Assembly (NCBI GenBank): GCA_016928095.1
Contig: JAFGLL010000010.1
Span: 1-41,381 of the forward strand
Reading direction: 5' to 3'
Source: Thermoplasmatota archaeon
Lineage (GTDB): Archaea > Thermoplasmatota > Penumbrarchaeia > Penumbrarchaeales > Penumbrarchaeaceae
Length of the DNA stretch: 41,381 bases
Position numbers and translations under genes: made by a program. The notes beneath the pieces were generated by a model. That model was not told the origin of the DNA, ran no database searches, and worked only from the letters and a program-made list of their open reading frames with translations. The stretch's first letter is position 1; each line of letters starts with the position of its first letter. This document shows, in pieces, positions 1,314-9,433 of the stretch.

Positions 1314-2189
1314 TCATGGTTCTGATCTATATTCCATCTTGAAACTGACCAGGGGGGCTGCATAGGTCAGTGAACCCATACTGATGATATCCGCGTAGGG
1401 GGCATAGAGGTTTAGGTTCTCCATCGTGATGCCGCCCGATGCTTCCAGTATCGTACTCTTCCCGTGTTCCTCCGCGTATCTCCGAACCTCCCTGGAAGCT
1501 TTCATGAGGTCCTCGGGAGAGAGATTATCCAGCATTATTATGTCCGCTCCCGCATCGACCGCTGCCATCCCTGAGGGTATGTCCTCCACTTCCACCTCTA
1601 TCTTGATGTAAGGGCCATACCTCTCTCTGAGCATCTCAACACCGCTGAGAACCGCATCAGGACCGCCTCCGAGGGCTGCTATATGGTTATCCTTCAGCAT
1701 GGCCATCGTTGAGAGATCGGGTCGATGCGGGAGTGCGCCGCCGTCGATCAGAGCCCTTTTTTCGAGGATCCCGAAGAGAGGGGTGGTCTTTCTCGTTCCG
1801 GCAACCCTGGTGCCAGGGGACGTTTTGTCGGCTAGGTCCGAGGCCTTCCTTGCCAGGGTTGCGATCCCGGACATCCTGGAGATGGTGTTGAGGGCCACCC
1901 TTTCAGCCCTCAGAAGTGCTTCCACCGGTCCCTTGACCGTCGCTATGACCGCACCTTTCCCGCAGATAGAGCCCGGTAAGGCTCCTTCGGATAACCTTGC
2001 CTCCGCACCTGCCCGTTCGAATACGTATTCAAGGGCCTCAAGCCCTGACAGTATGCAATCATCCTCGGAAATTATTACGGCGTCCCCCATCTCTCCATCG
2101 AACACGCAGGAGGTGAGGTCACCTCTGCCAGAATCCTGCTCGAGTGCCATATCAAGGAGATTCTTCTCCTCGTCCGTCAAGGGCATCAT
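1314..2189 (-). CDS. nadC: Nicotinate-nucleotide pyrophosphorylase (carboxylating)
   Basis: Converts quinolinate and PRPP to nicotinate mononucleotide, CO2 and pyrophosphate in de novo NAD synthesis. With the ATG at 2189 it is 291 residues, the usual family length. Visible signatures are EQDSGRGDLTS near the N terminus, TRKTTP at about 132-137, the HR pair at 155-156 and KDNHI at 166-170, all parts of the quinolinate/PRPP site. A GGI-type C-terminal barrel strand (EASGGIT) is also present. The start is ambiguous: ATG codons at 2204 and 2222 and a TTG at 2240 (preceded by GAGGAG) are in frame. I chose 2189 because family members begin close to this point and the overlap with the upstream surface-protein gene is then only 38 bases. 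nadE lies 6 kb away. Confidence 0.95.
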   Translation of the reverse strand: MMPLTDEEKNLLDMALEQDSGRGDLTSCVFDGEMGDAVIISEDDCILSGLEALEYVFERAGAEARLSEGALPGSICGKGAVIATVKGPVEALLRAERVALNTISRMSGIATLARKASDLADKTSPGTRVAGTRKTTPLFGILEKRALIDGGALPHRPDLSTMAMLKDNHIAALGGGPDAVLSGVEMLRERYGPYIKIEVEVEDIPSGMAAVDAGADIIMLDNLSPEDLMKASREVRRYAEEHGKSTILEASGGITMENLNLYAPYADIISMGSLTYAAPLVSFKMEYRSEP

Positions 2190-5100
2190 GGGGGGCTGAT
2201 TCATCAACTGCCGTATAATCATTGTCACTGCTTTCGACAAACTGCTCCTCGTTATGATAGGTCAGACGGGGTGCAGACTTGTATCCTTCCGGCAGGAGAT
2301 CGTCATCGTTGGCCGGCCGCATCGACTCCTCCAGATCGGACCTGACCTTTTTTATCACCCTCTTAGTGATCGATAACAGGATCAGAGATACTATCAACAA
2401 TGCAACGATGATCATGATCATCCTGAACCAGGGAAAGGCATTCTCCTCTTTCTTCTCCCCGCTGACCATGAAGCTCTTCGAATAGAGGGGCTGCTCCTCC
2501 CCATCCATTAAAAGGTAAAGGAACCATTCACCGGACATGTTCAGGTATACCAGGGAGTAACCCCCACTGCACCTCTCGAAAACAAGGTCCCCGGATTCCC
2601 ACACCCAATGAACCTCGATCCCACCGTCGTAGCCGCCGAACACGCAGCTTGCTGCAGCGGATTCCCCTTTTTCGTATACCTCCCTGTCAGGCTCCAGATG
2701 GACCTCGAACCAGAATGTTGATAGATTGCGGTCCACGATGAGCAACATCTCCTCTGGCCCGGCCGAGGTCCCGTTCACTACCCCGTAGGAAATATCAAGA
2801 TGGTACTCTGCGGAATCACCGTCGACCGGAGACACGCACAGCTTGCTTCCTTCCAGGGAAAGGAAGTCATTCAGACCGTTGACCCGGTACCAGGGAGTTC
2901 CGTTCTTGTCATATCCAAACCCCATATCGAGAAGGAGGATCTCCCTCTCATATAGTATGTAGGAAGGTGGGTGATGCCATTCCGGGAACATGGTTCCCTC
3001 CACTTTCAGAAGGACCTCCATGTTGACACCCAGATACTCATCATCCATGAAGCGGATGGTGAAATCATGGCTGCCCATGTCATCCATTGTTGGAGCCAGA
3101 TGCATGGAAAGGTCATCCTCGTTCACCTTTACCCATTCCGGCATGTCCTCGTCCGGGAGAACGAATACCTTCTCGTCATCGGGGTCGTGAACATCGAAGA
3201 GAACGGTCATCAGGTCCCCGGCCTCGACACGGATGACCATGTTATCAGGGACCACCGGGGCATGGTTTTTAATGTATACCGAAAGGGAAAAGGTCTCCGA
3301 AACCACCGATCCATTATTGTCATCCACCTCGACGGTCACGGTCTGGATCCCGATGTCCACATCGTCGGGTGTTATCCTGATCCAACCGGTCTGGTCGATC
3401 GATGCATCTCCCATGCCCGAATAGTTCAGAGAGAATATGAGGATATCAGGGTCGTCCTCGATGACGACGACCTGGTATGTGAACTCCTGACCTGGCTCCG
3501 CTTCCATGTCCGAGATGGGCATTATCTCTGGGGCTTTGTTCACGTGAAGGACCACTATCCTGATACCGACAAGTGTAAAGGTCCCGTTGTTGTCGCTGAA
3601 GTTCAGAACTGCCCTGTAGTCCCCTTCCTGGCCGAGATAGGGCATGAAGGAGAGGATGAAATATCTGTCGATGCCAAGGGAAAAAGGCGTCTCCGTGCTC
3701 TCCACCCTCACCGAGACCTCATCCCCGTTGGGATCGGAGAAATTGAGCTGGTGTCTCCTCGTCTCACCGGGGTAAATAGAAAATGTAGGGATCGGTTCAA
3801 CCACTGGGGGGAGATTGCGGAAGGTGACAACGATCCGGAATTGCCCGGCATCCATCGATCCGTTGTTATCAGTGACGTTTACCTCAACATCTATGAACCC
3901 AACATCTTCAGGAACTGCAGGATACTCAAAGCGGCCTGTAGCGGGATCGAGGTAAAAATCAGTTCGTGGATCGGTCCTAACCTCGAAGAACGGCTCATCA
4001 CCGTCGGGATCGTGAGCCTCGAAGGTAAGGTTGACCCATTCACCCACAAAGACCGATCTGTCCTCGAGAGGTCCCATATTTATCGGCTGGTTTATTCTTT
4101 GCCCGGGCAGTCCCGAAAGAGGATATTGGTCCACGCTGTCGCCGTCGATCCAGTAAGGCTTGTCATAAATGCCATCCCCGTTGTTATCGAAGAACCCCAC
4201 GAGATCACTCCAATAGTTGCCGCGTTGGTCTTTGTACCAATATTGCGACCCCCCGTCCATCGCGTGAACCGAGTTGTTGATGAACAAGTTCTCGTAAAGG
4301 GTGTTGGACCCGCATGTCGAATGTAAGTAGATACCGGTGCTGCTGGTATTCAGAAAGGTGTTGTTATGAAGCAGCATACTACCCATATTCTTTAAAACTA
4401 CACCGGTATCGCAGTTTTCGAAACTGTTGTCAAGAAGGTCGTCGCTTTCGGTGGAGCTCCCGTTGATGGCCAGCGAGCAGTTGATGAACACATTTCCTGT
4501 TATCTGGTTGTTCTCTGTCACCCAGAACATTCCACCATAATCCAGACCGATACCGGGACAATCGACGATCTCGTTCTCCCTGAACTCGGAGGTCATCATG
4601 TACCTTACATATATTGCGTCGGAGCAATTGATGAACCGGTTCCGGTTGATCCTCATAACACCATAGCTTGCTGCCGAGATGACATAAGGCCGGAGGTATA
4701 GAGCATGAAGGCTGACGTTGGTAAAGAGGCACCATTCGAAGATAGAGTCATCTGCATGGTAGATATCGACCCCCCCATTGCATTTTTCGAAGGTGTTTTC
4801 ACGACAAATGATGGAAGGACTGCTGTATCTCTGATTTTCAAGATCTTTAATAGCCCATCCCCCGATATTCCTGAAACTGCATCGGGTCAGGTCCACCGTA
4901 AACTCACAATTCTCGGATAACAGGATACCATGTCCCGGTATATCCATGAAGTCACAATCAACGAATTTTCCGATGGTCCCTTCTTCAACGTAGATGCCGT
5001 TGTAGCATGAATAGAAGGTTGAGTTGCTGGATGTCGTCCATCTGCTAGCCAGAACTCCACTATTGTTACCATCCCCCCATCCAGCATACGAGATGTTCGA

Positions 5101-5478
5101 ATCGACGATGGACATGGTTCCCATGGAGTTGATGAAGTAATTGTAACCGTGATTGTTGGAGAATGCACCCGTTCTGTTCAGGGTCAGAAGGGCCCCCTTC
5201 TCTATCCTCAGTGTCCCATGGGGCTCCACTGTGAAACCATACTCCCCGTCGCAGGAGCAGTTGAAAATCACGGTGGTATTGCCTATGATCAGGGTCTCCC
5301 CCTCTCCCACGATGATGTTCTCCTGGACATACAAGATAGTGTCGTTCACGTACGTCACGGCTCCCCACATCGGAAGGAAGCTGTCATTGGCCTCTACCGG
5401 CCCCTGGTCATACAGAACGAAACCTGGAACTGCCAACAGCAGAAAGACGGCGATCGTCGCGATCCTCCCTTTCTCCAA
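2152..5478 (-). CDS. Secreted, membrane-anchored beta-helix and cadherin-like surface protein
   Basis: Predicted surface protein of 1108 residues; the molecular role is unknown. Residues 1-28 form a signal peptide after a TTG start. About 40-430 is a right-handed beta-helix of the NosD/parallel-helix type, with repeated N.F.NC and SIVDSNIS-like turns and a closing NYWSDLVGFFDNNGDGIYD segment typical of NosD-like proteins. About 460-850 holds four Ig/cadherin-like modules, each starting near a Pro-rich strand and containing DPDGDE or DNNGS turns. A transmembrane helix lies at about 1013-1035, then basic residues and an acidic cytoplasmic tail of about 70 residues. N-x-S/T sequons are abundant. 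The only upstream start compatible with the signal peptide is TTG at 5478; a TATA-like GATATAATGC lies about 35 bp before it. It probably follows the PAP2 gene (40-base gap). Confidence 0.85.
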   Translation of the reverse strand: MEKGRIATIAVFLLLAVPGFVLYDQGPVEANDSFLPMWGAVTYVNDTILYVQENIIVGEGETLIIGNTTVIFNCSCDGEYGFTVEPHGTLRIEKGALLTLNRTGAFSNNHGYNYFINSMGTMSIVDSNISYAGWGDGNNSGVLASRWTTSSNSTFYSCYNGIYVEEGTIGKFVDCDFMDIPGHGILLSENCEFTVDLTRCSFRNIGGWAIKDLENQRYSSPSIICRENTFEKCNGGVDIYHADDSIFEWCLFTNVSLHALYLRPYVISAASYGVMRINRNRFINCSDAIYVRYMMTSEFRENEIVDCPGIGLDYGGMFWVTENNQITGNVFINCSLAINGSSTESDDLLDNSFENCDTGVVLKNMGSMLLHNNTFLNTSSTGIYLHSTCGSNTLYENLFINNSVHAMDGGSQYWYKDQRGNYWSDLVGFFDNNGDGIYDKPYWIDGDSVDQYPLSGLPGQRINQPINMGPLEDRSVFVGEWVNLTFEAHDPDGDEPFFEVRTDPRTDFYLDPATGRFEYPAVPEDVGFIDVEVNVTDNNGSMDAGQFRIVVTFRNLPPVVEPIPTFSIYPGETRRHQLNFSDPNGDEVSVRVESTETPFSLGIDRYFILSFMPYLGQEGDYRAVLNFSDNNGTFTLVGIRIVVLHVNKAPEIMPISDMEAEPGQEFTYQVVVIEDDPDILIFSLNYSGMGDASIDQTGWIRITPDDVDIGIQTVTVEVDDNNGSVVSETFSLSVYIKNHAPVVPDNMVIRVEAGDLMTVLFDVHDPDDEKVFVLPDEDMPEWVKVNEDDLSMHLAPTMDDMGSHDFTIRFMDDEYLGVNMEVLLKVEGTMFPEWHHPPSYILYEREILLLDMGFGYDKNGTPWYRVNGLNDFLSLEGSKLCVSPVDGDSAEYHLDISYGVVNGTSAGPEEMLLIVDRNLSTFWFEVHLEPDREVYEKGESAAASCVFGGYDGGIEVHWVWESGDLVFERCSGGYSLVYLNMSGEWFLYLLMDGEEQPLYSKSFMVSGEKKEENAFPWFRMIMIIVALLIVSLILLSITKRVIKKVRSDLEESMRPANDDDLLPEGYKSAPRLTYHNEEQFVESSDNDYTAVDESAPHDALDGRGEESP

Positions 5479-5518
5479 ACTGCTACCCCGCTTATATTAT
5501 CCCGTGACATGCATTATA

Positions 5519-6523
5519 TCATTTTCTGTACACATTCATATCCACAGGAGTGCCTCTTTCATTGAATACGGGATCGTTCCGGGGAAGGGGCGCAACCCTG
5601 GAGGACCATTTTCTGTTGAGCCAGTTCGCAGCGTATATAGATATTCCCGCCACCGCGAAACCCGCAGCCACATCGACTACCCAGTGATAGCGCAGGTATA
5701 TCGTCGAGAAGAGAAGGGACAGAGTGAGCGGGATGTAGGCGTAATAGACCCATCTGGATGCCCTCGAGTGGTCCCTCAATCTTCTCATGTAATAGAAGGA
5801 TATCAGGGACATTGCGGTATGATGGCTCGTGAAACAGTCCCGCGTCGTGCTTCTCATCATATCCCAAACCGGTTCCACCCTCTGGTAGAGGAAGATCCCC
5901 TGAAGGTCCACTGAGTATCTTTCAGGCATGAAGTACTTCGGACCGATGGCCGGCACCAGCATGTATCCTATATATGCAATGTAAAGGGATAGACAGACGG
6001 CCAGCATGAGGTCCCTGAAGTCGCCTCTTCTTCCCGATATCGAGAAGACAAGGGCCGGAAGGGCTGGTAGAAAGAAGTAGAGCAGGTAGGCGAATGTCAT
6101 ATAATCTGTCAGAACCGGATGGGTGATCCTTTCCATCCATATTGTTGGCTGTGTCCCGAAGACCGTCCGGTCGATCTCCATCAGGGAAGGATCAGCGAGG
6201 TCTTTTACTACCAGTGGAAAGAGGTGGGTCATGTTCTCGTAAACAAGCAAAACCAATACAAGAGGCAGGTAATCCCTCAGGGACCGTCCCGTACCTTCCA
6301 TGAACATTCTACCGCTCGTGAAACCTCCACGGGCATTCACCCCTCCGATGAAGATCACAATCAGGGCGATGGAAGCGGTGAAGAAAGTAACGAACACGAG
6401 GTCTTCGGGCCTCGCCCACCTCCTGGGACCGGGACCCGGATCCGATCTTCGAACTCCCCCTTTGCACGGGACAAATAACCGTTTTGATTTTTGATCCGCT
6501 CTCCAAAATAGTTTATCGGACAA
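5519..6523 (-). CDS. PAP2-superfamily membrane phosphatase/transferase (Aur1-like type)
   Basis: Integral membrane protein of the PAP2 superfamily. The late motifs are clear: CFTSHHTAMS at about 228-237 (motif C2, His as acid/base) and STIYLRYHWVVDV at about 270-284 (motif C3, with the nucleophile-type His and its Asp). The classical K-x6-RP motif C1 is not seen; GPKYFMPERY stands near its expected place, as in the Aur1/PAP2_3 branch. About six hydrophobic helices are visible. Members of that branch dephosphorylate lipid phosphates or move polar headgroups between lipids; which applies here cannot be told. The start is uncertain: TTG 6523 (used here), ATG 6559 (overlapping the divergent HD gene by 20 bases) or GTG 6397 just before the first helix. 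It is probably first in an operon with the beta-helix protein. Confidence 0.82.
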   Translation of the reverse strand: MSDKLFWRADQKSKRLFVPCKGGVRRSDPGPGPRRWARPEDLVFVTFFTASIALIVIFIGGVNARGGFTSGRMFMEGTGRSLRDYLPLVLVLLVYENMTHLFPLVVKDLADPSLMEIDRTVFGTQPTIWMERITHPVLTDYMTFAYLLYFFLPALPALVFSISGRRGDFRDLMLAVCLSLYIAYIGYMLVPAIGPKYFMPERYSVDLQGIFLYQRVEPVWDMMRSTTRDCFTSHHTAMSLISFYYMRRLRDHSRASRWVYYAYIPLTLSLLFSTIYLRYHWVVDVAAGFAVAGISIYAANWLNRKWSSRVAPLPRNDPVFNERGTPVDMNVYRK

Positions 6524-6539
6524 GTGAGATACGGTTCGG

Positions 6540-7871
6540 ATGAGCGAGCACAAGATCATTAACGATCCCGTTCACGGGACCATCAAGATATCGGGTCCTC
6601 TCCTGGAGCTGGCCGCCACCCCGGAGATCAACAGGTTGAACCAGATAAGACAGCTGGGGCTGGCCTATCTTGTATTCCCCGGAGCCCATCATACCAGGTA
6701 TGAGCACTCTTTCGGAGTGGCCCATGTTGCCGGACTGCTTGCGGACTCCATAGGCCTCGAAGAGCACGAGTCGGACCTGGTCCGGACGGCCGGGCTCCTT
6801 CACGACATCGGCCACGGTCCCTTCTCCCATACCATGGAAAAGATCTTCTTCGACCGTATCGGGATGGACCACATGGCCCTGACAAGGGATATCATCATCG
6901 GAGTTGCCGACCAGTGGGATGAGGAATGGTGGAGATCGAGAGGGGTGGAGAGAGGGCCAACGGTCCCTCAGCTCCTGGAAAGGCATGATCTGGAACCGAA
7001 GAAGGTTGCAGCGCTCATCTGTCAGGAGCATCCCGGCGCACCCCCCGGCCAGCAAACACTGGACCTGCAGGAGAAGCAGTCCTACTTCTCCTCGAGACGA
7101 TATCTATACCAGATCATCCATTCGGCCCTCGATGCAGATCAGCTGGATTTTCTCCTCAGGGACTCCCACTACACTGGTGTCGCCTACGGCATCATCGACC
7201 TGGACCGGATAATCGCCACGACAACCCTCTTCCACGGTGAGCTCATGGTGGAGAGGAGGGGTATCTCCTCGCTGGAAGGGATGCTCGTAGCCAGGAGCCT
7301 GATGTACAGCTCCGTATATTTCCACAAGACCGCAAGGATAGCTGAATCGATGCTGTGCCGGGCGGGGGAGACCTTGACGGATGAAGAGCTTGAGGATTTA
7401 TGGAAGATGCCCGACGGGGAGGCCCTGAGGTTCATGAGGGAGCGCCCTGGACCATGCGGCGAGCTCTCGACACGCCTTACGTACCGCAAATTGTACAAAT
7501 CGGCGTTTCGGACCGATTCCGAGATGATCGTGGGGGAGAGCGAGGCAGCCATCACCATGAGAGAGCGCATCAAGGAGCTTTCGGACAAGAACGCCTCGGC
7601 AAGGTTGGAGAGGGAGATCGAGAGGAAGGTCTCCATGCCCGAGGGGTCCGTGATACTGGACATCCCCGATCCGAGCCTGACCCTGTTCGAGCCCCGGCTC
7701 CGGAGGACCGACATCAAGGTCCTGGGCGATAGACCTGAGATCCTATCAAGGATATCATCATTGGCCAGAGCCCTTCAGAGACGGCCCCCTATACCTTGGT
7801 GCCTGATGATATCGTGTCCGGAGGAATATGTACCGGACGTGAAGAGGGTCGCCGGTACCCTCCTTCAGTAG
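6540..7871 (+). CDS. HD-domain phosphohydrolase (dNTPase/SAMHD1-like, COG1078 type)
   Basis: Cytoplasmic metal-dependent phosphohydrolase of 443 residues. The first metal ligand is H56 in RYEHSFGVAHVAG, the HD pair is H88-D89 in LLHDIGHGPFSH, and the last Asp is in SALDADQLDFLLRD (198-203). That layout matches archaeal and bacterial relatives of dGTPase and SAMHD1. KIINDPVHGTI at the very N terminus is the usual opening of this family. The natural substrate (dNTP, another nucleotide or a cyclic nucleotide) cannot be read from the sequence. The gene is divergent from the PAP2 gene, sharing an AT-rich region at about 6470-6520, and ends 6 bases from the convergent small membrane-protein gene. 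No strong ribosome site is seen before the ATG, so a short leader is likely. Confidence 0.9.
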   Translation: MSEHKIINDPVHGTIKISGPLLELAATPEINRLNQIRQLGLAYLVFPGAHHTRYEHSFGVAHVAGLLADSIGLEEHESDLVRTAGLLHDIGHGPFSHTMEKIFFDRIGMDHMALTRDIIIGVADQWDEEWWRSRGVERGPTVPQLLERHDLEPKKVAALICQEHPGAPPGQQTLDLQEKQSYFSSRRYLYQIIHSALDADQLDFLLRDSHYTGVAYGIIDLDRIIATTTLFHGELMVERRGISSLEGMLVARSLMYSSVYFHKTARIAESMLCRAGETLTDEELEDLWKMPDGEALRFMRERPGPCGELSTRLTYRKLYKSAFRTDSEMIVGESEAAITMRERIKELSDKNASARLEREIERKVSMPEGSVILDIPDPSLTLFEPRLRRTDIKVLGDRPEILSRISSLARALQRRPPIPWCLMISCPEEYVPDVKRVAGTLLQ

Positions 7872-7877
7872 CCATCC

Positions 7878-8096
7878 TCAGAAGAAGAAATAGAGGAACG
7901 CAAAGGTACCTATGAGGCATAGGGTTAGGGCCAGGATCAGGAGAAGGCCTGCGGTCAACCAGGCGTCCGTTCTTCTCTTCCTCTCGAATAGTCCCCGGAG
8001 CTTGGCTATACGATAGGACCATCTGTAGAAGTGGTCCATCTCTGCAAGTTCGGAAAGGGGGTCGTCCCCCACCTGGTGAAGCAGTTCGTATCCCAT
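7878..8096 (-). CDS. Small tail-anchored membrane protein
   Basis: A 72-residue protein with a soluble N-terminal part (1-45), a basic stretch (LRGLFERKRRTD) and one hydrophobic helix at about 47-71 that ends the protein. This is the form of a tail-anchored protein whose N terminus stays in the cytoplasm. The start is supported by GGTGG six bases before the ATG. It lies 10 bases after the TBP-like zinc-ribbon gene on the same strand and is surely co-transcribed with it. I do not recognise the family. The context suggests it may hold the upstream protein or another factor at the membrane, but nothing in the sequence proves an interaction. Confidence 0.75.
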   Translation of the reverse strand: MGYELLHQVGDDPLSELAEMDHFYRWSYRIAKLRGLFERKRRTDAWLTAGLLLILALTLCLIGTFAFLYFFF

Positions 8097-8106
8097 ATGT
8101 TACCAC

Positions 8107-8460
8107 CTATCTCTGGAGCAGATATCCGCATTCGATACAGACCATGTCCTCGGAATCCACGACGGTATTGCAGTTGGGACATGTTATCCTGGGTGTTATC
8201 ACTCCGGATTCCTCCAGTTTCTTGGTGAGCTTCTTGAAGAGTGATTCCACTTCCTGGACCGACCTGACATTGGTGCACATGAGCTTTCCGTTCTCCATGA
8301 TCACTACGACCGCATAGGAGTTCTTCGGTCTCCAGATCACACCGGGGAAGTTCTCCGGGCTGAAGTCCGAATCATCCAGCTTCTCTGCTACCTCGCGAAG
8401 GTCCAGCCTGGCGTTGATGTTGGAAGATGCCATGATGTTCTCTATTTGGTAGTTGGGCAA
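8107..8460 (-). CDS. Single-repeat TBP-like protein with C-terminal zinc ribbon
   Basis: A 117-residue protein. Residues 3-88 match one repeat of TATA-binding protein along its whole length: strand 1 (YQIENIMASSNINARLDL), helix (EVAEKL), the stirrup segment NFPGVIWRPKN, NGKLMCTNVRS, and the long helix (EVESLFKKLTKKLEESGV). Canonical archaeal TBP has two such repeats. One of the two DNA-intercalating Phe positions is kept (F38 in FPG); the other (Phe in LIFSSGK of TBP) is Met55. The C terminus carries CPNC (94-97) and CIEC (108-111), a four-Cys zinc ribbon. I chose TTG 8460 because the ATG at 8433 would cut off the conserved first strand, and because a TATA-like TCAATATACC lies about 35 bp upstream. 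It is divergent from nadE and followed by a tail-anchored protein gene. Role (promoter factor, regulator, DNA or RNA binding) unknown. Confidence 0.85.
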   Translation of the reverse strand: MPNYQIENIMASSNINARLDLREVAEKLDDSDFSPENFPGVIWRPKNSYAVVVIMENGKLMCTNVRSVQEVESLFKKLTKKLEESGVITPRITCPNCNTVVDSEDMVCIECGYLLQR

Positions 8461-8489
8461 GAAGATCCCTTCCGGGAAAGAAGATGCAT

Positions 8490-8517
8490 TGGTATATTGA
8501 TTTTTTGTCGATATTGA
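8490..8517 (-). promoter_or_regulatory. TATA-like element and direct repeat before the TBP-like gene
   Basis: On the minus strand TCAATATACC lies about 35 bp before the TTG start and would give a leader of about 10 bases. ATATTGA (plus-strand reading) occurs twice, at 8494-8500 and 8511-8517, so the TATA-like core is duplicated 17 bp apart. Function is inferred from position only. Confidence 0.4.
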
Positions 8518-8534
8518 GCATTTCACCGACCGAT

Positions 8535-8546
8535 GATATAAAAAAC
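8535..8546 (+). promoter_or_regulatory. TATA box of nadE
   Basis: GATATAAAAAAC lies about 40 bp before the nadE ATG at 8579 in an AT-rich divergent region. A start of transcription about 25 bp downstream leaves a short leader without a ribosome site. Confidence 0.5.
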
Positions 8547-8578
8547 AAATAATACGACCAGTAAAATACCTATTCTTC

Positions 8579-9433
8579 ATGAAGGACCTGATTCCCCGGT
8601 ACGACCCTCACAGCCGGACCATCATCGTGGATTTCCTGAGAGAGCGGTTCGATGAAGCAGGGGCGGACCTTGCACTGATAGGTATCTCGGGGGGCCTGGA
8701 TTCATCCCTTACCCTCGGTCTCGCCAGAGAGGCGGTCGGAAAAGATAGGGTCAAAGGTTACTTCCTGCCCTACGGCGATCTCGGTTCGGAGGACAGGATA
8801 TACGCCCGTTCGGTCTCCGAGACCTTCGGGACCGCTCTGGAGGAGATCGATATAACAGGCATGGTGGATTCCATCCCTTTCCCCATCAATGGAATGGTCC
8901 AGGGAAATGCTCAGGCCAGGGCCAGGATGCTTGTCCTCTATGCAAAGGCAAATATCCTGAACGGTCTCGTCATAGGGACATCGAACAAGACCGAGCTCTT
9001 ACTCGGATATTTCACCAAGTTTGGGGATGGAGGGGCCGATATATATCCTCTCGGGGACCTGTACAAGACCCAGGTCAGGGTCATGTCGAAGGAGATGTGT
9101 GTCCCGAGCCCTATCATAGAAAGACCCCCTTCGCCAGGTCTTATCGCTGGTCAGACCGACGAGGGCGATCTTGAGGTCCCCTATCCGTTATTGGACCAGG
9201 TACTTTACGGTCATATCAGGGATATGGACCCGGATACCATAGCAGACAATATGGATTACACTACCACCACGGTGGAGGAGATGGACCGGGCCGGTTTCGA
9301 GCCTCCCATCTCCACCGAAAAGGTCAGAGAGATACTGAGCAGGGTTAAAAGGACCCGACATAAGAGATGTCCCCTTGCTGTTCCGAAACTGGAGATCGCC
9401 ACGATCGGCCTCGACCTTAGGGAGAGGTGGTGA
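8579..9433 (+). CDS. nadE: NAD+ synthase, ammonia-dependent type
   Basis: Amidates nicotinate adenine dinucleotide to NAD+ using ATP in the cytoplasm. At 284 residues it has only the synthetase domain and no glutaminase domain, so it should use ammonia or a separate amidotransferase. The ATP-pyrophosphatase P-loop SGGLDSS is at residues 37-43. Other family blocks are GTSNKTELLLGYFTKFGDG, DIYPLGDLYKTQVR and the C-terminal KRTRHKRCPLAVP. The start at 8579 agrees with the TATA box upstream. The next gene begins 7 bases after the stop and is probably in the same transcript. NadC in this window makes nicotinate mononucleotide for the same pathway. Confidence 0.97.
   Translation: MKDLIPRYDPHSRTIIVDFLRERFDEAGADLALIGISGGLDSSLTLGLAREAVGKDRVKGYFLPYGDLGSEDRIYARSVSETFGTALEEIDITGMVDSIPFPINGMVQGNAQARARMLVLYAKANILNGLVIGTSNKTELLLGYFTKFGDGGADIYPLGDLYKTQVRVMSKEMCVPSPIIERPPSPGLIAGQTDEGDLEVPYPLLDQVLYGHIRDMDPDTIADNMDYTTTTVEEMDRAGFEPPISTEKVREILSRVKRTRHKRCPLAVPKLEIATIGLDLRERW

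What the first reader, a model, noticed from the sequence alone, without database searches (positions are those of the whole stretch)
8107..8460. Half TBP fused to a zinc ribbon
The protein contains just one TBP repeat, matching canonical TBP from the first strand to the long helix, followed by a four-Cys zinc ribbon. Archaeal TBP has two repeats in one chain, so this form would need to dimerise to make a saddle, or bind nucleic acid or protein differently. One intercalating Phe is kept (F38) and the second is Met55, so the DNA-bending surface is altered. Single-repeat TBP-fold domains are known (for example in RNase HIII), but this close TBP sequence plus a ribbon looks like a distinct, possibly regulatory, basal-factor variant.
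Basis: partly seen in the sequence, partly recalled or inferred. Interest (0 to 1): 0.85.

Follow-up and report, generated by a model that had tools for sequence, protein, structure and literature searches.

The report
Half-TBP fused to a zinc ribbon
A small archaeal protein consists of one half of the TATA-binding protein, a universal gene-start factor that normally has two halves, joined to a small zinc-binding domain; it has been kept as a single gene across one family of Thermoplasmatota archaea alongside the normal factor, so it is probably a specialised accessory transcription protein.

Summary
Window 8107-8460, minus strand, is an intact 117-codon ORF with one TBP repeat (PF00352, 67.3 bits, cut-off 22.9) followed by a CPxC-x10-CxxC zinc ribbon. 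No second repeat lies nearby in any frame.

It is neither truncated nor an assembly error. Seven genomes of one Thermoplasmatota family carry it as a single-copy orthologue (55-82% identity to the window protein). All have one repeat, all four cysteines, the same neighbours (nadE and an HD phosphohydrolase), and purifying selection.

The same genome has a canonical two-repeat TBP, a divergent two-repeat TBP and one TFB, so this is an accessory factor. Minor-groove residues (N8, F38, T63) are invariant. Two groove valines are Met/Ile, and the TFB-contacting stirrup Glu is lost. M55 is lineage-specific: three of seven orthologues keep Phe.

Single-lobe TBPs in archaea are already reported. The ribbon fusion and its fixation in one family are, as far as I could search, new.

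Best reading: a homodimeric, TBP-like DNA-binding regulator (mechanism confidence 0.42; dimerisation untested).

The parts
8107..8460 (-). ORF of the half-TBP / zinc-ribbon protein (117 aa, TTG start, TAG stop)
   Evidence: seven orthologues of nearly the same length; dN/dS 0.10-0.25
8209..8451 (-). single TBP repeat (residues 4-84)
   Evidence: PF00352 67.3 bits; the only match on the contig; fold match to TBP chains
8125..8181 (-). zinc ribbon core C94-P-N-C97-x10-C108-I-E-C111-G
   Evidence: 4 Cys invariant in 7/7; all 7 match Zn_ribbon_3/Zn_Ribbon_1/DZR at E<=0.01
8465..8473 (-). Shine-Dalgarno-like GGAAGGGAT just upstream of the TTG start; GGGAT is conserved in 6 of 7 genomes (GGGTAT in G004)
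   Evidence: upstream sequences and alignment
8491..8509 (-). putative BRE/TATA-like core promoter GACAAAAAATCAATATACC, near-identical in the three genomes of the genus and loosely kept in the others
   Evidence: alignment of intergenic regions; inferred, not tested
7878..8096 (-). small protein (72 aa, hydrophobic C-terminus) 10 nt downstream, probable operon partner; found in 6 of 7 genomes
   Evidence: synteny; no Pfam family
8579..9433 (+). divergent neighbour nadE (NAD synthase)
   Evidence: PF02540 199 bits; adjacent in all 7 genomes
6540..7871 (+). convergent neighbour, HD-domain phosphohydrolase
   Evidence: PF01966 / PF19276; conserved neighbour in all 7 genomes

Best explanation
This is a stable, accessory member of the TBP superfamily, a monopartite TBP with a C-terminal zinc ribbon. 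SHOWN: one TBP lobe plus a four-Cys ribbon; vertical inheritance and purifying selection in one Thermoplasmatota family; coexistence with canonical TBP and TFB; retained minor-groove residues with a distinct family signature on the same face. INFERRED: the protein dimerises through the free S1 edge strand, which in two-repeat TBP pairs with its counterpart. This would rebuild a symmetric ten-stranded saddle that sits in the minor groove of A/T-rich, TATA-like DNA. Because the stirrup lacks the Glu that holds TFB and canonical TBP is present, it would act as a regulator (occluding or replacing TBP at a subset of promoters), with the ribbon as a contact for RNA polymerase or a partner. Its own promoter and the divergent nadE promoter are the first candidate targets.
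For: Domain content and fold. Orthologues, single copy. Two-repeat TBPs and one TFB in the same genome. Purifying selection (omega about 0.2 in the unsaturated pair G006/G007). Clade support 100/99. DNA-face residues: N8, F38, T63 invariant, K/R59 kept, against V10 to M/I, V61 to M, G64 to N, S57 to D/N; stirrup E34 to N/S/K (contact roles from established TBP-DNA/TFB structures and PMC7221094). Divergent nadE neighbour and shared intergenic promoter region.
Against: No direct evidence of dimerisation or DNA binding. The acidic residue at position 57 in most orthologues and bulkier groove residues could weaken DNA binding. A search for the start-site inverted repeat found no regulon. The nadE synteny is part of a wider conserved neighbourhood, so it is weak evidence for nadE as target. 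The model confidence is moderate and covers the monomer only.
Confidence: 0.42

Rival explanations
1. It works as a monomer: the single lobe grips a nucleic acid (duplex DNA or DNA-RNA hybrid) like the TBP-like N-domain of RNase HIII, with the ribbon as a second nucleic-acid or protein contact.
For: Known single-lobe TBP domains outside TBP act as single copies (RNase H3, PMC4132731 abstract; PMC7221094). The concave face is altered relative to canonical lobes.
Against: Sequence is far closer to canonical TBP lobes than to RNase HIII: the strong PDB hits are all TBP, with no RNase H3 among listed matches.
Confidence: 0.23
2. It is mainly a protein-protein regulator: it binds RNA polymerase (ribbon) or the TBP/TFB complex and inhibits or tunes initiation, in the manner of repurposed factors such as Sulfolobus TFS4.
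For: Presence of canonical TBP and TFB; short ribbon; precedent of zinc-ribbon paralogue TFS4 as an RNAP inhibitor (PMC5715097 abstract); an adjacent small protein with a hydrophobic C-terminus that could be a membrane partner.
Against: Minor-groove residues N8, F38, T63 stay invariant, which pure protein binding would not require. The ribbon is closest to generic ribbons, not TFB's.
Confidence: 0.2
3. An alternative basal factor: a dimer that recruits TFB and replaces TBP fully at some promoters.
For: Retained DNA-face residues; many archaea use several TBPs (PMC7289017).
Against: The stirrup Glu (C.L3.2), which PMC7221094 ties to TFIIB binding, is N/S/K in all 7. A symmetric dimer would lose the N/C asymmetry that orients TFB.
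Confidence: 0.1
4. A truncated or frameshifted two-repeat TBP, or an assembly error.
For: None in the window; one damaged copy exists in a 54%-complete sister-family genome (G009).
Against: Seven assemblies with the same architecture, omega 0.1-0.25, no second repeat near it.
Confidence: 0.01

Closest known systems
Canonical archaeal TBP (e.g. Pyrococcus woesei 1AIS/1PCZ, Methanocaldococcus 2Z8U)
   Same: Same TBP repeat, about 30-33% mean identity of the window protein to either lobe of phylum relatives; minor-groove Asn, Phe and Thr kept
   Different: One repeat instead of two; extra zinc ribbon; V to M61 and G to N64; TFB-contacting Glu lost; coexists with canonical TBP
Monopartite (single-lobe) archaeal TBPs, Brindefalk et al. 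2013 (NAR 41:2832), noted again in PMC7221094
   Same: Stand-alone single TBP lobe in archaea
   Different: From memory of its abstract, the earlier report describes proteins consisting of a single TBP domain; the C-terminal zinc ribbon and its fixation across a family are not described in what I could read (the 2013 paper is not held)
TBP-like N-domain of RNase HIII
   Same: Single TBP lobe that binds a nucleic-acid duplex
   Different: There it is fused to an RNase H domain and is very divergent in sequence; no RNase H domain here
TFB/TFIIB N-terminal zinc ribbon
   Same: CPxC...CxxCG ribbon; 4 of 7 members match PF08271 weakly
   Different: Shorter spacing (x10 here; longer in this genome's TFB, read); nearest ribbons in the genome are generic ones, not TFB

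Membership tests
TBP superfamily (PF00352 lobe) | Significant match to the TBP repeat profile | tested here: met
   67.3 bits vs cut-off 22.9; all 7 orthologues
TBP superfamily (PF00352 lobe) | TBP-lobe (helix-grip) fold | tested here: met
   AlphaFold2 pLDDT 80; Foldseek E 1e-6, rmsd 1.2 A to TBP
Canonical two-repeat TBP | Two tandem repeats in one chain | tested here: not met
   One repeat only, 7 of 7 orthologues
Canonical two-repeat TBP | Minor-groove Asn and Thr, first intercalating Phe | tested here: met
   N8, T63, F38 in 7/7
Canonical two-repeat TBP | Second intercalating Phe | tested here: not met
   Met55 in the window protein and 4 of 7; Phe in the other 3
Canonical two-repeat TBP | TFB-contacting stirrup Glu of the C-lobe | tested here: not met
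   N/S/K at position 34 in 7/7; Glu in 37 of 40 canonical C-lobes
Canonical two-repeat TBP | Binds TATA DNA and supports initiation | not testable with these tools
   needs biochemistry
Monopartite archaeal TBP | Single TBP lobe in an archaeal protein without a partner lobe | tested here: met
   category documented in PMC7221094; here it carries an added ribbon
Zinc ribbon | Two CxxC knuckles | tested here: met
   C94, C97, C108, C111 invariant in 7/7; Pfam scores of the window protein just below curated cut-offs
Zinc ribbon | Zinc binding | not testable with these tools
   inferred from Cys pattern
TFB ribbon | PF08271 match above cut-off and TFB-like spacing | tested here: not met
   20.7 bits vs 29; shorter spacing than own TFB; own TFB not among ribbon hits
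RNase HIII | RNase H catalytic domain | tested here: not met
   117-aa protein with only TBP and ribbon matches of note

The most novel reading that the evidence does not exclude
A homodimeric single-lobe TBP with two zinc ribbons forms a perfectly symmetric saddle and works as a promoter-directed regulator, giving a living model of the presumed one-repeat ancestor of TBP and a second, TFB-independent way of using the TBP fold in archaeal transcription.
Probability: 0.2. Interest if true: 0.85.

Novelty: new variant of a known kind. Interest (0 to 1): 0.55.

Why it matters
TBP is thought to have arisen by duplication of a single repeat. A conserved one-repeat TBP-like protein that keeps the key minor-groove residues, lives beside normal TBP and carries its own zinc ribbon lets one test directly whether one repeat can dimerise into a working saddle, and what archaea use it for. 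It also extends the list of archaeal transcription-factor paralogues with an architecture not in Pfam or NCBIfam as a named family.

Tried and rejected
Frameshift or assembly error: rejected by seven orthologues and no second repeat nearby. Ribbon derived from TFB: not supported. Viral or plasmid origin: no half-TBP/ribbon in viral contigs. Haloarchaeal virus and plasmid hits are annotated TATA-box-binding proteins; the two viral genes checked are 180-205 codons long. Origin by loss of one lobe of the canonical TBP: a tree of 86 columns cannot decide; grouping with the family's own N-lobe or C-lobe is not rejected (p-AU 0.19 and 0.09). SD-sequestering hairpin: no better than shuffles in the window sequence. 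Regulon from the start-site inverted repeat: four genome hits, not pursued further. G239 candidate half-TBP: contig end of an ordinary TBP. G003 lacking the gene: nadE is missing too, so the locus is probably a gap in that assembly. Own-genome FASTA was not available. Brindefalk 2013 is not held.

Full report
OBSERVATION. The ORF lies on the minus strand, 8460-8107, 117 codons, TTG start with an upstream GGAAGGGAT and a TAG stop. One TBP repeat covers residues 4-84 (PF00352 67.3 bits, cut-off 22.9), and phmmer against the PDB gives archaeal TBPs at 3.6e-28, matching each of their two repeats in turn. C94-P-N-C97-x10-C108-I-E-C111 forms the ribbon. The AlphaFold2 model (pLDDT 80, 7-row alignment) matches TBP chains with rmsd about 1.2 A over about 80 residues.

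NOT AN ARTEFACT. A whole-genome PF00352 search finds one match on this contig, plus two repeats of a canonical TBP (C51) and two of a divergent TBP (C108). A PF00382 search finds one TFB. The same architecture appears in seven genomes of the family, one copy each, 55-82% identical to the window protein and of nearly the same length. The eighth genome (G003) lacks nadE as well, so the locus is probably missing from its assembly. dN/dS is 0.10-0.25 where it could be computed; in the one pair with unsaturated dS (G006/G007, dS 0.44) it is 0.20. Record titles of the orthologues name Candidatus Thermoplasmatota or Thermoplasmatales MAGs.

DISTRIBUTION. Among 390 Thermoplasmatota genomes no other full-length match appears (matches are listed best first and the list is cut, but the full-length ones score far above the rest). 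A pattern-based scan of 84,980 species genomes returned only the six other family members, and no viral contig did. A sister-family genome (G009, 54% complete) holds a damaged copy in which two short stretches are missing, but the CxECG end is still readable. Two other single-lobe proteins turned up without a ribbon: G011 (single lobe plus acidic tail, about 148 aa) and G107 (99 aa, encoded about 0.7 kb upstream of a TFB gene).

CONTEXT. Gene order x468 - TM102 - winged-helix - (x170) - nadE <-> half-TBP -> small protein - HD phosphohydrolase is kept, with nadC on the far side of HD in the genomes whose contigs reach that far. The small downstream gene is absent in G004. Because the whole neighbourhood is conserved, adjacency to nadE is weak evidence of a functional link. 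The intergenic region carries a conserved BRE/TATA-like block and an SD.

RESIDUES. Against 40 canonical N-lobes and 40 C-lobes, N8, F38, G58, T63 are invariant in the half-TBPs, and position 59 is K/R. Canonical V is M/I at 10 and M at 61; canonical G is N at 64; S is D/N at 57; PK is xY at 48-49. Position 55 is M in 4 and F in 3. The stirrup position equal to the TFIIB-contacting Glu (C.L3.2 in PMC7221094) is N/S/K. Which TBP residues touch DNA is established knowledge of TBP-DNA structures; the mapping here is by alignment.

PHYLOGENY. The half-TBP/ribbon proteins form one clade (100/99), with subgroups that match the genome groups, so inheritance looks vertical. With 86 columns their place relative to N- and C-lobes is not resolved; grouping with G011 is weakly favoured (70/69), and origin from the family's own lobes is not rejected.

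HOW IT PROBABLY WORKS. In two-repeat TBP the S1 strands meet at the pseudo-dyad (established knowledge, not re-derived here). In this protein that edge would be free, which makes homodimerisation into a symmetric saddle the simplest way to use the retained minor-groove residues. The loss of the TFB-contact Glu and the presence of ordinary TBP and TFB point to a regulatory rather than basal role. The ribbon resembles generic ribbons more than TFB's. Dimerisation, DNA binding and targets are inferred, not shown.

KNOWN OR NEW. PMC7221094 states that single-lobe versions of TBP exist in archaea, citing Brindefalk et al. 2013; that paper is not held, and its abstract, as I recall it, describes proteins consisting of a single TBP domain. 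No paper found here describes a TBP lobe fused to a zinc ribbon. I therefore call this a new variant of a known kind.

Noticed in passing
G000:C108:82949-83443 (L004/L005; L046 10917-11510): A second, strongly diverged two-repeat TBP with counterparts across the family (G003, G004, G005, G006, G007) and probably in G009; second repeat reads like 'LPGF.L..G..GIE.LIFPEGKIIS.GA'. A separate TBP paralogue worth its own look.
   Followed up: partly
L098 2451-2747 (G107:C1): Stand-alone single-lobe TBP, 99 aa, encoded about 0.7 kb upstream of a TFB gene in a distant Thermoplasmatota genome; no second repeat found nearby in any frame.
   Followed up: partly
L045 8984-9427 (G011:C245): Single TBP lobe followed by a long, very acidic tail instead of a zinc ribbon; a possible DNA-mimic tail.
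   Followed up: partly
L037 5003-5403 (G009:C48): Damaged copy of the half-TBP/ribbon gene in the sister family: two short stretches missing, both junctions containing GGTGGAG; pseudogene or assembly fault.
   Followed up: partly
window 8458-8460 and orthologues: All seven orthologues appear to start with a non-ATG codon (TTG x5, CTG, GTG) behind a GGGAT-type SD; possible conserved low or controlled translation.
   Followed up: partly
window 7878-8096: Conserved 72-aa protein with hydrophobic C-terminus directly downstream (6 of 7 genomes); possible membrane partner of the half-TBP.
   Followed up: no
window 1317-9433: nadC and nadE flank this locus in the family, with the HD phosphohydrolase and half-TBP between them.
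   Followed up: partly
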